Of a DNA stretch of 64,000 nucleotides, positions 43,453-47,515 are shown piece by piece. Source of the DNA: Planktothricoides raciborskii GIHE-MW2 (GTDB lineage: Bacteria > Cyanobacteriota > Cyanobacteriia > Cyanobacteriales > Laspinemataceae). Positions within the stretch are counted from its first letter, which is position 1. Each line of letters begins with the position of its first letter. The stretch is taken from contig NZ_CP159837.1 of assembly GCF_040564635.1 (NCBI RefSeq), positions 3,645,001-3,709,000 of the forward strand. The letters are read 5' to 3'. The notes under the pieces were generated by a model. It was not told the DNA's origin, searched no databases, and was given only the letters and a program-made list of their open reading frames with translations. Made by a program: the position numbers and the translations under genes.

Positions 43453-43812
43453 TTAATCCTCTGGGGATAAGCTGCTGGCATTAATCCCAAATAGATTTTC
43501 CAGTTGGTCCGTTGACCAAGATTCTGTGCGGTAGGCGATCGCAGAAATGGAGGACAAGCGGATTAACCAAGCGGTACTTTCATAGGACGCTTCTTCTTGT
43601 TCGTCTTCGTAAAACGTTCCTAACACCAGAATTTCCAGAAATTCTCGATTGAGATTGATTGGTACACCACTAAAACTTCTTTCTTCTGTTTCAATCCAAA
43701 CTTGAGTACCTCGATCAAGTGCTTCTTGTAGTCTTTGATAGAGGAGATTTGATTTTTTGACCTTGGTTTTTTTTCCCACGGTGTTTTTCCTTATGGAAAT
43801 GTCAGTGGACAA
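43453..43812 (-). CDS. Small Sm-like protein downstream of the Ro-like gene
   Basis: The 119-aa protein has a basic N-terminus (RKNTVGKKTKVKKSNLLYQR). A beta-rich core follows whose pattern recalls Sm1 (VWIETEERSFSGVPINLN, then LEILVLG) and Sm2 (AWLIRLSSISAIAY) motifs. An Sm/LSm fold is inference; the family is otherwise hypothetical to me. It lies 78 nt after the Ro-like gene on the same strand, so RNA-linked function is plausible. The C-terminus is acidic (NASSLSPED). Confidence 0.6.
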   Translation of the reverse strand: MSTDISIRKNTVGKKTKVKKSNLLYQRLQEALDRGTQVWIETEERSFSGVPINLNREFLEILVLGTFYEDEQEEASYESTAWLIRLSSISAIAYRTESWSTDQLENLFGINASSLSPED

Positions 43813-43890
43813 GCGATCGTGTCAAGGAGAGAAAATGCTGAGAGTTAATACACTTTTGGCATATTATGAGCCTTCTCCCCTTGAAGTGAA

Positions 43891-45324
43891 CTACCGATCA
43901 TCACGTACCGGCAACGGTGTTTCCATTATTTCCATCAACAACTCCAGACGCGATGGACGAGACAGGAGTGGGACGAGATTCGGTAGCGAGTAGTAGTCTC
44001 CAGAAAAGGTGAAAGTTTCCACCGGCAAGTGCTTATTTTTTAGCTGAGTTTCAGTCCAATCATAAGCATACCCTACTTTTACTATAACCACATTTGGCAT
44101 CACTGCCATTTCGCGGCAATAAGTTTGGTAAGCATCATGGAAATAAGGTACAGCATTTTCTCCTTCGTCGGTGACAAGAATGATTTGGTCTACTATTTGC
44201 TGCTTGCGTCGTAGTGCTTCCATCGCACAGCCGATGCTGGTGCCACCACCGGCGCGAATATGCTCAAAAGCACGTTCCCAGTCGCTCAACTCTGGACCTT
44301 TGGCTTCCACGTAGTAAGGTATGGTGTCGAAAGCGTACACGAACAAGTCAGCATCAGAGATTCCAGAAATTAAAGCAGCTAAATGCTTACCGACTTCGAG
44401 CGCTTTCTCCATACTGCCACTTTTGTCTACTAGCAAACCAGTGGACTTAGTAATTTTACCGCGTTTCTTGACCTGCTCGTTAGTGATTTGTTCCAACTGG
44501 GCAATGGTGGCGGTGTCTAGCTGGGTGGCTGCCGCTGCGACCCGCGCTTTATAGGCAGAAACGCGATCGCACTTTTGGGCTGCTTTCAGTTTTTCATCGA
44601 TCAAAGCCTTCACCTCTGGGTGATCCATTGCCCCCCGTCCTTGCAGGGACTTGAGGTTATTAATCACCTCCTGGGGAGACATGGAGTTAATCAAGGCTAC
44701 CAAAACCGTTGGGGTCAATTGGGCGATCGCCCCAATTGCGATCGGATAAGGAATATTGTGTTCTACAATCAGCGCCGCTTGTTCTCCGGGAGTTTTCCCT
44801 TTCGCCAACTGCTTGACCATAAAAGCCAGACTATCCACTGGAGGCTGATCCTTAAACAAAATCGCATCAGCGCGAGGTAGTGGTTTAATATGCAGGGTGG
44901 CATATAAGTGCTTCATCGCTTTCCGGTTACGCAGGGCAGCGCGATCGAAAAACTGGGGATTCTTTTCCCGTTCCTTCAAATAGCGAGTCACCGCTGTCCG
45001 AGCCGATCGCGGCATCTTCCCTCGATGTCGTTTCATAAAATCAACAATTCTTGACACCTGGTAAGGCGGAAACTCTTGTAACATCACAAAACCCGCATCG
45101 CGATGTTCTGTCAAAGCACTGGTCAGCAAATAGCTTAAAAACACTTCTTGATGATCCCGCACCTCCCCATTTTTCTGATACCAAACGGCCAAATGACCAT
45201 AAAAAATTGGATCGACATCGATCATCAACTGGTGAGTTTCTGCCACATCTTCCAGCTTGCGGTGTGGGGTGATCAACAAACTATTCAGCATTTCTAATCG
45301 TAAATCGCGTTCTGCGGTATTCAT
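43891..45324 (-). CDS. Divergent Ro60-like protein (TROVE-like helices + vWA)
   Basis: The 477-aa protein has two parts. Residues about 1-270 are helical repeats: [80 protein letters not shown]. They follow the order seen in Ro60/TROVE rings, though the bacterial Ro60 N-terminal signature is absent. The C-terminal vWA domain has MIDAS residues in [13 protein letters not shown] and TDEGENAVP plus GGGTSIG. Ro60 rings bind misfolded RNA and Y RNAs. Four Y-RNA-like elements lie directly upstream on the same strand, which strongly supports this reading. Alternative: a vWA protein of a MoxR-type chaperone. Confidence 0.7.
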
Positions 45325-45376
45325 CTGTCACCTCTTATGGTTCAAAATAACTAAGGAAGCAGATGTCGCCCACTCT

Positions 45377-45543
45377 AAAAAAAGAGTGCCGCGCAAGTTT
45401 TAGCCGGAAAGTATTAGCCTGTGCTGACATAGAAACCGGGTTTCTGAAAAAAAACAATTTCATCCTCAGATGAGACAAAAAAACCCGGTTTATAAAATTA
45501 AATCGTTCAGCCCTGTAAACCTTCCTAATTTGGGCGCAGCGAC
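45377..45543 (-). ncRNA. Y-RNA-like RNA D (no tRNA-like domain)
   Basis: The 5' arm GTCGCTGCGC (45543-45534) pairs with the 3' arm GCGCGGCAC (45394-45386), nine pairs with one bulge, and seven Us follow (45383-45377). Inside are GCGCCC on the 5' side and AAAACUUGCGC on the 3' side, matching the other three RNAs, and further pairing (GGAAGG/CUUUCC, GCUGA/UCAGC). The distal arm holds an AAACCGGGTTT/AAACCCGGTTT hairpin. The 3' end is 52 nt before the Ro-like start codon. Confidence 0.5.
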
Positions 45544-45613
45544 AATATGTTTTGGTGAAAATAATTTGACAATTTGACAATTTGACAATTTGACAATATT
45601 TGTGAATTATTTT

Positions 45614-46081
45614 TTAATGCGGACAGCCAAACGGTGATCCTTTGTCGGTCAGGAGTCGCAAAGGATAAATTGGCCCGCCGCTGGCCAAATAATCACAAAT
45701 TTCGCACACTTCCTGGGCTCTCAAGGGTAATTTTTTCATCTCTTCTCGACAAAACCAACCAGCCCTTAAGGATTCGTGATCCGCAATACTTTTTGGCGCC
45801 GTATCGTCCAAGGGATGCGCCAAAAAAATCACCCGAAACCGGGCTTTATCCTTAACAGGAGTATGCTCGATTCTTAAAATTCCATCCAGGGCAATGGGAA
45901 TTCCCCCTTCTTCTAGCGTTTCCCTGACTGCCGCTGCCATCAAAGTTTCTCCTGGATCCACTTTTCCATGCGGAAAATACCAATTCTGACCGTATTTCGG
46001 TTCCTGAATTAACAGAAACCGATGGTGATAACGGACAACAACTAGGACAAAATAAAAGGTGATAATCGGCTGACGCGACAT
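45614..46081 (-). CDS. Nudix hydrolase
   Basis: Nudix enzymes hydrolyse nucleoside diphosphates linked to other groups, including capped RNA ends. From ATG 46081 (MSRQPIITFYFVLVVVRYHH) the protein has 155 aa, the usual size. The full Nudix box GX5EX7REX2EEXGX is present (GKVDPGETLMAAAVRETLEE, GG). The frame stays open far upstream only because of a 14-bp tandem repeat, so longer starts are rejected. It sits between Y-RNA-like elements and the Ro-like gene; a link to RNA end processing is possible but unproven. Confidence 0.88.
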   Translation of the reverse strand: MSRQPIITFYFVLVVVRYHHRFLLIQEPKYGQNWYFPHGKVDPGETLMAAAVRETLEEGGIPIALDGILRIEHTPVKDKARFRVIFLAHPLDDTAPKSIADHESLRAGWFCREEMKKLPLRAQEVCEICDYLASGGPIYPLRLLTDKGSPFGCPH

Positions 46082-46121
46082 GGAATTGAGCGGCTTCCAG
46101 GAGCGATCGGGTTTAGTGTTT

Positions 46122-46470: not shown

Positions 46471-46602
46471 TTGTTCCTGATTGATTTTAAAAGGTTCTTC
46501 TGTTTATGATTCGCCTATCGCAGATATTTCTGAGCAAATCAGTGCGATCAAACATCAGCAAGTTGTTAAAGAATCTAAACAACATTAACCGAGTGGATGA
46601 TT

Positions 46603-46736
46603 AAAAGACACCCCGCGCAAGTAAAAAAAGCCGTGGTTTCATACGCAGGAATTGAACCTGCATCATCCTGATCTTAAGTCAAGCGCCTATACCATTTGGC
46701 TAGTATGTAAGCTTTTTTAGTTAGGGCGCGAGATGT
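46603..46736 (-). ncRNA. Y-RNA-like RNA B with tRNA-like domain
   Basis: Outer arms ACATCTCGCGC / GCGCGGGGTGT pair over 11 bp (with G-U), followed by four Us. The internal loop is CCTAACT against TACTT, and the inner stem is AAAAAAGC/GCTTTTTT. The apex (46640-46707) folds as a tRNA: acceptor CATAC/GTATG, D-arm GCC/GGC with GG in the loop, anticodon arm CTTGA/TCAGG with loop CTTAAGA (UAA), and T-arm GCAGG-TTCAATT-CCTGC. The short acceptor stem, extra 5' and 3' stems and lack of a long variable arm argue against a real tRNA-Leu. Confidence 0.7.
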
Positions 46737-46984
46737 ATATTTCAACCATAGCACATTCTCTCGGTAATTATGTAAAGCTTTGTTGACAAATTGGCCGGAA
46801 CAAATGCCGGAACAAATTTTTCCCTTTCTCACTGCTGACTGGCAATAGGGGACTTTTTGGCATTTGGCAAAATCCCGCTACCTGAAAGCCCGTTTTCTGA
46901 GTATATATGCTGATTATCTGAACCCTGAACCATCCAAAGGCAAACGGATTTCTAGGGGTCAAACTCAGATCGCAGAATTAATCA

Positions 46985-47050
46985 CATAATCACTCACATA
47001 ATGTCACACATAATGTCACACATAATGTCACATATAATGTCACATATTTG
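46985..47050. repeat. 12-13-bp direct repeat ACATAATGTCAC, four to five copies
   Basis: Copies of CACATAATGTCA follow one another with slight drift (CACATATAATGTCA). They lie between RNA B and RNA C, in a 340-nt spacer that otherwise shows a few hairpins but no gene. TGACA/TGTCA half-sites could be operator-like, but the simple-repeat explanation is enough. Confidence 0.8.
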
Positions 47051-47071
47051 ATCAGATAATTGGCAGCGAGG

Positions 47072-47219
47072 AAAAAAAGACTTCGCGCAAGTTCAAAAAG
47101 CTGTTGTTTCATAGGCAGGATTTGAACCTACGAACTCACGATTGAGTTACTTGATTGACTGTCAAGCGCCTTAAACCACTAGGCAAGTATGTAAGCTTTT
47201 TGCGTCAGGGCGCGAAGTC
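47072..47219 (-). ncRNA. Y-RNA-like RNA C with class-II tRNA-like domain
   Basis: Perfect 10-bp outer arms GACTTCGCGC / GCGCGAAGTC are followed by seven Us (47078-47072), a good terminator. The internal loop is CCTGACG against AACTT, and the inner stem is CAAAAAGC/GCTTTTTG. The apex (47110-47191) has a D-arm (GCC/GGC, GG in loop), an anticodon-like arm CTTGA-CAGTCAA-TCAAG with A instead of the universal U33, a long variable arm AACTCA-ATCG-TGAGTT, and a T-arm (GTAGG-TTCAAAT-CCTGC). The missing U33 and weak acceptor suggest a tRNA mimic rather than a decoding tRNA. Confidence 0.7.
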
Positions 47220-47314
47220 TAGCTATCTGTAATCTGGCAGATAATCAACGCATATCTTGATGCTTTTCTGGTAATTCAATTTTTAGATAAATCATGGAAA
47301 AATTCGGTAAATAT

Positions 47315-47515
47315 TTAACCGTAAACCGCTTCTGGTCTGACAATCATGTCGCCGCTGGGACGATGATCAATCACATAATCGTTAAAGCGATTAATGGGCA
47401 GGTCAAAATATTGTGCCAGACGTTCTTTGATGGCAACTTCGGTCATATTTGGGGAGATGCCTAGCTCGCGATCGCCTAAATCATAAGATCGTCCTTCAAA
47501 GCGAATGTGAATCAT
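47315..47515 (-). CDS. Small conserved protein (66 aa) upstream of RNA C
   Basis: A near-perfect AAGGAGGTG site precedes ATG 47515, so the gene is surely translated. The protein reads [20 protein letters not shown] and ends [10 protein letters not shown]. The alternating beta pattern, a central helix ([13 protein letters not shown]) and a short C-terminal tail are compatible with a beta-grasp fold, but that is a guess. I recall similar cyanobacterial hypothetical proteins. It lies 96 nt upstream of RNA C on the same strand. Confidence 0.75.

What the first reader, a model, noticed from the sequence alone, without database searches (positions are those of the whole stretch)
43453..47515. Ro60-like RNP locus: divergent Ro-vWA protein with four Y-RNA-like RNAs
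Seen directly: a helical-plus-vWA protein gene lies on the same strand as four structured elements (45377-45543, 46391-46470, 46603-46736, 47072-47219). Each has a 9-11 bp terminal stem, a 5' CCCURAC-like or GCGCCC side and a 3' ACUUG side; three share an inner stem (AAAAAGC/GCUUUUU type). Established: bacterial Ro60 proteins are encoded next to Y RNAs, some with tRNA-like domains. The protein here lacks the usual bacterial Ro60 N-terminus, so the pair may be an undescribed branch. The Sm-like protein, Nudix enzyme and small protein in the same block could be accessory parts. Role in RNA quality control is inference.
Basis: partly seen in the sequence, partly recalled or inferred. Interest (0 to 1): 0.93.

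Follow-up and report, generated by a model that had tools for sequence, protein, structure and literature searches.

The report
Ro-like RNP with ribosome-mimicking RNA array
Some cyanobacteria and at least one huge phage carry a gene set made of a distant Ro60-like protein, a tiny partner protein and a row of small RNAs that share one handle but display look-alikes of tRNA and, in many relatives, of vital pieces of ribosomal RNA, perhaps as bait for enzymes that attack or handle the translation machinery.

Summary
The 477-aa protein has the full Ro60/Rsr fold (Z 21.5 to D. radiodurans Rsr over 439 residues) but no Pfam TROVE match. Three of the four window RNAs are strong members of a structured RNA family; the fourth, nearest the gene, is degenerate. 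Across 55 related loci the RNA signature occurs 204 times on the gene strand and twice on the other. The RNAs share a handle (outer stem, CCYRAY/NACUU internal loop, inner stem, UACA) and carry interchangeable modules: tRNA cloverleaf with varied anticodon loops, permuted tRNA, a piece resembling 23S helices 69-70, a fusion of 23S sarcin-ricin loop and GTPase-associated centre, short hairpins. A 66-aa protein is the third component (45 of 55 loci; 24 of 29 genomes with the gene). Sm-like and Nudix genes are not. A 595-kb phage record carries the set. The window genome itself shows only tRNA-type and short RNAs. Most likely use: bait or decoy RNPs for enzymes acting on tRNA and the ribosomal A site, RNase toxins first (0.42); a RYPER-like tether is the main rival. 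No expression or binding data exist. New variant of a known kind.

The parts
43891..45324 (-). Ro-like protein, 477 aa: helical N-terminal part plus vWA domain with MIDAS residues DKSGS, T362, D386
   Evidence: AF2 mean pLDDT 82.5, pTM 0.63; Foldseek top 13 hits all Ro60/Rsr/TROVE; Z 21.5 to 2nvo; no Pfam TROVE hit at E<=1; D300, S302, S304, T362, D386 invariant in 24 sequences
45384..45543 (-). Degenerate handle RNA next to the gene start (possible leader copy), with an inserted inverted repeat
   Evidence: 16.7 bits, E 0.38; fold z -4.04; a copy at the same place in sister locus L018 5810-5923
46391..46470 (-). Short handle RNA (hairpin module)
   Evidence: 72 bits, but its copy in L017 is in the training set; z -8.92
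46608..46736 (-). Handle RNA with tRNA-cloverleaf module, anticodon-like triplet UAA
   Evidence: 56.1 bits, not in the training set; Rfam tRNA 55 bits; ARAGORN tRNA-Leu(taa)
46634..46709 (-). tRNA-like core of the previous element; its acceptor end runs on into the handle
47079..47219 (-). Handle RNA with tRNA-cloverleaf module, anticodon-like triplet GUC, with a long variable arm
   Evidence: 58.3 bits, not in the training set; z -5.40; Rfam tRNA 32.8 bits
47106..47193 (-). tRNA-like core of the previous element
47315..47515 (-). 66-aa protein (sp66), predicted beta-beta-alpha-beta-beta, invariant C-terminus RPEAVYG; constant third component
   Evidence: 45 of 55 loci, always on the gene strand and upstream of the Ro-like gene; 24 of 25 genomes with sp66 have the Ro-like gene; AF2 mean pLDDT 87.5

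Best explanation
Shown: a three-part gene set (sp66, an array of handle RNAs, a Ro60-fold protein), conserved in cyanobacteria and found in a 595-kb phage record and in shorter viral contigs. The RNAs share one handle and carry interchangeable modules that imitate structured RNAs of the translation machinery. Inferred: the Ro-like ring binds the common handle, so that each particle displays one module as bait. Most likely use: the modules capture proteins that recognise tRNA anticodon arms, the tRNA acceptor/T/D face, the sarcin-ricin loop with the GTPase-associated centre, or the helix 69-70 region. RNase toxins and anticodon nucleases are the prime suspects; the decoys would divert them from real tRNAs and ribosomes, or report their attack. 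sp66 would be a small subunit or a carrier-like protein of the particle (guess). The copy nearest the gene may let the protein control its own expression (guess). The odds given are for this mechanism; that the three parts form one system I hold at about 0.93.
For: Ro60 fold over the full length. 204 against 2 strand asymmetry in 55 loci. Covariation in handle and modules. In 43 tRNA-type elements the anticodon triplet is the most variable part: mean entropy 1.75 bits, 1.27 in the covarying anticodon stem, 0.16-0.64 in the other regions. Loop grammar is kept: among 81 seven-base loops of 92 elements U33 in 78, purine 37 in 74, 28 different triplets, all different within 22 of 23 loci that hold at least two (against the pooled frequencies this is only modestly more than chance by my estimate). 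rRNA modules: the sarcin-ricin/GAC class matches 23S at E 1.8e-15 and an LSU model above its cut-off, 51.2 against 50 bits; the helix 69-70 class E 1.2e-6; reversed and shuffled 23S give nothing better than 0.67. Known type II toxins hit tRNA anticodon arms and the sarcin-ricin loop (VapC) and 23S loop 70 (MazF-mt3, -mt6) (passages of PMC7180214). G000 has 44 PIN-domain matches, 43 over the Pfam cut-off. The copies on the Kovacikia plasmid (L119) and two viral contigs (L120, L121) lie beside tRNA arrays. A competitive-inhibitor role of the YrlA tRNA-like domain against an anticodon nuclease was proposed by others (passage of PMC7790460).
Against: No toxin, nuclease or other partner is shown to bind; no transcripts are shown. 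VapC-mt20 does not cleave isolated sarcin-ricin fragments (PMC7180214). The MazF-mt6 site UUCCU stands in only 1 of 14 helix 69-70 class elements, and the helix 69 loop looks opened. The permuted tRNA class does not display an anticodon loop. No ribonuclease that attacks the GAC is known to me (recall). Many triplets are not natural anticodons: 18 of 81 begin with A, and the window's own GUC copy has A instead of U33. No rRNA-mimic copy was found in the window genome (150 of 195 candidates scored in 113). The large phage locus also showed no rRNA mimic near the gene.
Confidence: 0.42

Rival explanations
1. RYPER-like tether: the RNAs bind the Ro-like ring by the handle and recruit housekeeping enzymes (PNPase or another nuclease, repair or modification enzymes) by their modules, so that different RNAs direct one particle to different structured RNAs.
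For: Published behaviour of Rsr/Y RNA/PNPase and of YrlA with DusA and TruB (passages of PMC8394870; PMC7790460). T and D arms are kept in both tRNA classes.
Against: Does not by itself explain the varied anticodon triplets within an array or the sarcin-ricin plus GAC module.
Confidence: 0.3
2. Translation-factor particle: the sarcin-ricin plus GAC module and the tRNA modules bind EF-G, EF-Tu or other ribosome factors, to store or inhibit them under stress.
For: Both RNA parts of the translational GTPase site are joined in one RNA. [quoted passage not shown] only the title seen, in a reference list).
Against: The sarcin-ricin 12-mer is present in 20 of 55 loci only; no test of binding; tRNA modules have no free acceptor end for EF-Tu.
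Confidence: 0.13
3. Ordinary canonical Rsr/YrlA locus already described, or plain tRNA genes and pseudogenes beside an unrelated vWA protein.
For: YrlA also mimics tRNA (PMC8394870); ARAGORN calls tRNAs here.
Against: No TROVE hit in G000; the handle model finds nothing at E<=1 in 8 of 8 canonical TROVE loci of about 3.2 kb each; covarying handle, strand linkage, rRNA modules, sp66.
Confidence: 0.05

Closest known systems
Bacterial Ro60 (Rsr, TROVE) with Y RNA, D. radiodurans type, RYPER
   Same: Ro60 fold plus vWA with MIDAS; noncoding RNA genes with a closed terminal stem beside the gene
   Different: No Pfam TROVE match; different handle; up to 9 RNAs found in one locus (L106); rRNA modules; sp66 partner
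YrlA RNAs (Rfam RF02553)
   Same: Permuted tRNA-like module (T arm, closed acceptor, D arm) in class c1
   Different: Best scores seen for these RNAs 22.6 and 28.9 bits against a cut-off of 69; class c0 keeps native tRNA order with an exposed anticodon arm; handle differs from that of canonical loci
Phage Ro60 (Thermus phage phiLo 9l5y; phrog_850; TROVE proteins noted in jumbo phages, PMC7824862)
   Same: Same fold; phage-borne; weak sequence match (phrog_850 E 3.6e-7; 9l5y E 0.0021)
   Different: sp66 and a handle-RNA array are not in the passages that I saw
RNA decoys such as CsrB/CsrC (PMC8058203 passages) and rRNA mimicry in r-protein leaders (recall)
   Same: Work by imitating a natural RNA ligand
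   Different: Here a repertoire on one handle, linked to a Ro-like protein

Membership tests
Ro60/Rsr (TROVE) proteins | Helical ring plus vWA fold over the whole chain | tested here: met
   Foldseek E 1.6e-12 to 2nvo; Z 21.5, 439 residues, rmsd 4.5; vWA-only chains at Z 16.0 or less
Ro60/Rsr (TROVE) proteins | Match to the Pfam TROVE model | tested here: not met
   No hit at E<=1; 0 TROVE matches in G000
Ro60/Rsr (TROVE) proteins | Profile-level sequence relation to canonical cyanobacterial TROVE proteins | tested here: inconclusive
   hhalign probability 58.8, E 9.4e-5
Ro60/Rsr (TROVE) proteins | Intact MIDAS | tested here: met
   D300, S302, S304, T362, D386 invariant in 24 sequences
Ro60/Rsr (TROVE) proteins | Binds Y RNA | not testable with these tools
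   Only linkage is shown
YrlA / Y RNA | Rfam YrlA score over the gathering cut-off | tested here: not met
   No hit in the window; 22.6 bits in L092 and 28.9 in L022, cut-off 69
YrlA / Y RNA | Closed terminal stem with tRNA-like module | tested here: met
YrlA / Y RNA | Same handle as the RNAs of canonical TROVE loci | tested here: not met
   Handle model has no hit at E<=1 in 8 of 8 canonical TROVE loci; flanks held there are only about 1.5 kb
Functional tRNA | Free acceptor end | tested here: not met
   In the consensus of 43 elements the acceptor strands run on into the handle; a CCA within 12 nt after the T arm stands in 30 of 92, not at an RNA end
23S rRNA mimic | Significant match to 23S beyond shuffles | tested here: met
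   Classes c4 and c2; not for the window's own RNAs
Ubiquitin-like (beta-grasp) protein, for sp66 | Fold match | tested here: inconclusive
   Foldseek best E 0.64; VIA Z about 5, e.g. ubiquitin variant 5.0, TtuB 4.7, below the level that the tool calls telling

The most novel reading that the evidence does not exclude
A new kind of RNP device: one Ro-like ring and a ubiquitin-like mini-protein serve a repertoire of plug-in RNA baits that together present the targets of translation-attacking enzymes (anticodon arms with many triplets, tRNA elbow and acceptor side, sarcin-ricin loop with GTPase-associated centre, helix 69-70), a programmable decoy or alarm system shared between cyanobacteria and huge phages.
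Probability: 0.33. Interest if true: 0.96.

Novelty: new variant of a known kind. Interest (0 to 1): 0.9.

Why it matters
What bacterial Ro60 and Y RNAs are for is an open question. A branch whose RNAs vary their anticodon loops on a fixed chassis and in many loci also imitate functional hot spots of 23S rRNA makes that question testable: mix module RNAs with candidate toxins or factors and see what binds. It also suggests rRNA mimicry in stand-alone RNAs, gives a defined small protein partner, and warns that tRNA finders call some of these RNAs as tRNA genes (ARAGORN called 74 of 92).

Tried and rejected
Sm-like (15 of 55 loci) and Nudix (3 of 55) genes as constant parts: rejected. 16S mimicry: in four genomes the SSU model reported only long rRNA stretches, and no class matched 16S beyond noise (the rows named L116_16S at 4386-4471 are 23S in that locus's flank). 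Against a clean picture: class c0 also matches 23S at E 0.0068 over 25 nt, a D-arm-like stretch near the GAC, which I take as chance likeness. rRNA mimics in the window genome: none found; its own 23S was not found in the held copy either, so these searches are weak there, and the first-look caps (150 scored of 3081, of 195) limit genome-wide claims. sp66: no Pfam or NCBIfam hit at E<=1 and no PADLOC hit at E<=0.1; one PHROG of unknown function, E 6.6e-5. PADLOC: Nudix to PDC-S07 E 1.9e-7; the Ro-like (SngA 0.012) and Sm-like (DrmC 0.021) hits taken as noise. A viral-contig search with the phage protein alone found no relative. Class c3 module (10 elements): no match found, unexplained. Helix 69 stem in c2: 86.9% of cells paired against at most 43.1% when slid, but 64 of 500 shuffles reach it, so the permuted-helix-69 reading rests on the sequence match and inspection. 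Outer-stem pairing is biased because elements were chosen by that stem; so is TAYA; the inner stem and module stems were not. One of 201 elements, L100 2778-3116, looks like a false positive. A5 holds 43 of the 92 c0 elements; A4 holds 23 of the 35 c1 elements plus 2 singletons; both chosen by hand for spread. The 55 loci are not all independent genomes (L016 and L040 are one genome). R1 was trained on 22 short elements, three of them from phage L118, which therefore match by construction. A U-tract (TTTT) follows the 3' stem in only 85 of 204, so termination by the handle is not general. Papers: I saw search listings and passages only; five papers that I asked for, among them reviews on bacterial Y RNAs, were not held, so novelty rests on searches of an open-access library and on recall.
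Full report
What was checked. The window lies in a 7.2-Mb single-contig cyanobacterial genome; a named record with the identical protein is Planktothricoides sp. SR001. The 477-aa protein has no Pfam TROVE, NCBIfam family or PDB sequence match of weight (best Pfam VWA_CoxE E 0.0016, below its cut-off). With an alignment of 24 sequences AlphaFold2 gave mean pLDDT 82.5, pTM 0.63 (five models from 64.6 to 82.5). 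The first 13 Foldseek PDB hits are all Ro60, Rsr or TROVE structures; VIA-align gives Z 21.5 to D. radiodurans Rsr over 439 residues, vWA-only chains 16.0 or less. Within cyanobacteria the family is sharply bounded: 29 of 386 genomes, matches at 64% identity or more except one 54% piece of a broken copy. A canonical TROVE protein is absent from G000 and present in 11 of 59 genomes searched; at least two of these (G001, G017) also have the Ro-like gene.

The RNAs. A descriptor (outer stem of six or more pairs, CC..A, TAYA soon after, ACTT then the stem's other half) run over 55 loci gives 204 matches on the gene strand and 2 on the other; matches lacking the TAYA part number 20 and 17. 195 lie upstream of the gene and 9 downstream. 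Fifty of 55 loci hold at least one. Of the five without, L020, L038 and L040 are short contigs or contig ends, and L102 and L103 carry a broken or partial gene and also lack sp66; L101, whose gene has two stops, keeps both. Removing duplicates leaves 201 elements in 30 clusters: c0 tRNA cloverleaf in native order (92 elements in 43 loci), c1 permuted tRNA (35), c2 helix 69-70 class (14), c3 unknown (10), c4 sarcin-ricin plus GAC class (8), short hairpin classes, singletons.

The structures are supported by compensatory changes: pairs with a two-sided change are 23 of 33 in c0, 21 of 29 in c1, 21 of 54 in c4, 14 of 37 in c2. Counting only helices that took no part in selection, c0 has 96.7% of cells paired and 147 two-sided cells, reached by 0 of 500 shuffles.

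Mimicry. In c0 the chassis is constant and the anticodon triplet varies most. Among 81 seven-base loops of 92 elements, U33 stands in 78 and a purine at 37 in 74; there are 28 triplets; in 22 of 23 loci with two or more, all differ. Eighteen of 81 begin with A and would be odd as real anticodons; the window's GUC copy has A at 33. The c4 profile matches 23S at the GTPase-associated centre with E 1.8e-15 and carries the 12-mer AGUACGAGAGGA that stands in the 23S sarcin-ricin loop; the 12-mer alone is too short to be significant by profile (E 0.16) but stands on the gene strand in 20 of 55 loci and on the other strand in none. Rfam's LSU models find such elements independently (E 2.8e-13, 5.9e-13, 2.0e-11, each just below the bacterial cut-off; 51.2 bits over a cut-off of 50 for the archaeal model in L089; no LSU hit at E<=1 in L092). 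A covariance model of c4 finds full-length copies in three genomes not used to build it (143 to 196 bits). The c2 profile matches 23S helix 69 (3' strand) and helix 70 with E 1.2e-6; by eye its far end continues with the other strand of helix 69, as if the helix 69 loop had been opened and tied to the handle. Helix numbers are assigned from recall. Reversed and shuffled 23S give nothing better than E 0.67.

The third component. The 66-aa protein sits upstream of the Ro-like gene on the same strand in 45 of 55 loci; in six of them some RNAs lie upstream of it too. Its last seven residues RPEAVYG are invariant in 32 aligned sequences. Of the ten loci without it, seven end near or inside the array or are short contigs, L022 has an array that reaches the edge of the fetched stretch, and two have broken genes. 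Of 386 genomes 25 have it, and 24 of those are among the 29 with the Ro-like gene (Fisher p 3e-32). The five Ro-like genomes without it are four with broken or partial genes and one on a 5.4-kb contig; G363 has sp66 alone. Its predicted beta-beta-alpha-beta-beta fold resembles ubiquitin-like proteins only weakly.

Viruses and plasmids. A 595-kb uncultured phage record holds the Ro-like gene (47% identity), an sp66 relative ending RPDAIFG (30% identity, E 2e-12), and seven handle RNAs by descriptor and seven by model, five of them the same. Of four further IMG/VR contigs of 37 to 85 kb with the gene, two have sp66 relatives and three have handle RNAs by model. Two of these contigs, and the copy on a Kovacikia plasmid, lie beside tRNA arrays.

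Reading. Anatomy and conservation are shown. That the protein binds the handle is inferred from fold and linkage. What the modules do is open. I favour bait or decoy (0.42) because the displayed parts coincide with known attack sites of type II toxins (PMC7180214 passages) and because a repertoire of anticodon loops is hard to explain otherwise; a RYPER-like tether (0.3) fits the published work on Rsr and YrlA (PMC8394870 and PMC7790460 passages); factor binding (0.13) is suggested by the sarcin-ricin/GAC fusion. Results against the decoy view are listed under the best explanation.

Status. The protein is Ro60-like in fold but not a member by the Pfam TROVE model; the RNAs are Y-RNA-like in design but not YrlA by Rfam score or handle. 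I file the whole as a new variant of a known kind, with a categorically new reading possible.

Noticed in passing
window 46634-46709 and 47106-47193 (-): ARAGORN and Rfam call these tRNA-like cores as tRNA (Leu taa, Asp gtc); automatic annotation may list them as tRNA genes.
   Followed up: yes
L044, L046-L050: In six of eight canonical TROVE loci of cyanobacteria, tRNA-like RNAs lie near the gene with Rfam tRNA hits mostly stretched over 108-168 bases (insertion inside the tRNA); weak YrlA hits (27.6-37.1 bits) in three.
   Followed up: partly
handle RNAs, e.g. L017:4603-4731: UACA directly after the inner stem stands in 200 of 201 elements (the descriptor asked for TAYA), also in modules without tRNA, mostly followed by (U/C/A)AC. 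UACAU is a MazF-type cleavage site by recall; meaning unknown.
   Followed up: partly
L021:5188-5320, L035:5871-5981 and eight more (class c3): A conserved multi-stem module of unknown likeness upstream of the Ro-like gene.
   Followed up: no
G000 whole genome; window 49509-50177 (-): 44 PIN-domain matches in the genome; the ORFs at 49509-49907 and 49926-50177 look like a toxin/antitoxin pair (by eye, not scanned).
   Followed up: partly
L119 (Kovacikia plasmid), L120, L121: The system lies beside arrays of many tRNA genes.
   Followed up: no
L039: A contig binned as Acidobacteria carries Ro-like gene (67% identity), sp66 and two RNAs; real transfer or misbinning not settled.
   Followed up: no
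window 46117-46356: Tandem repeat (about 14 bases) that lengthens the Nudix reading frame with a repetitive N-terminus; TTTTGAA-type repeat at 43000-43120 (by eye).
   Followed up: no
G363: sp66 without a detected Ro-like gene.
   Followed up: no
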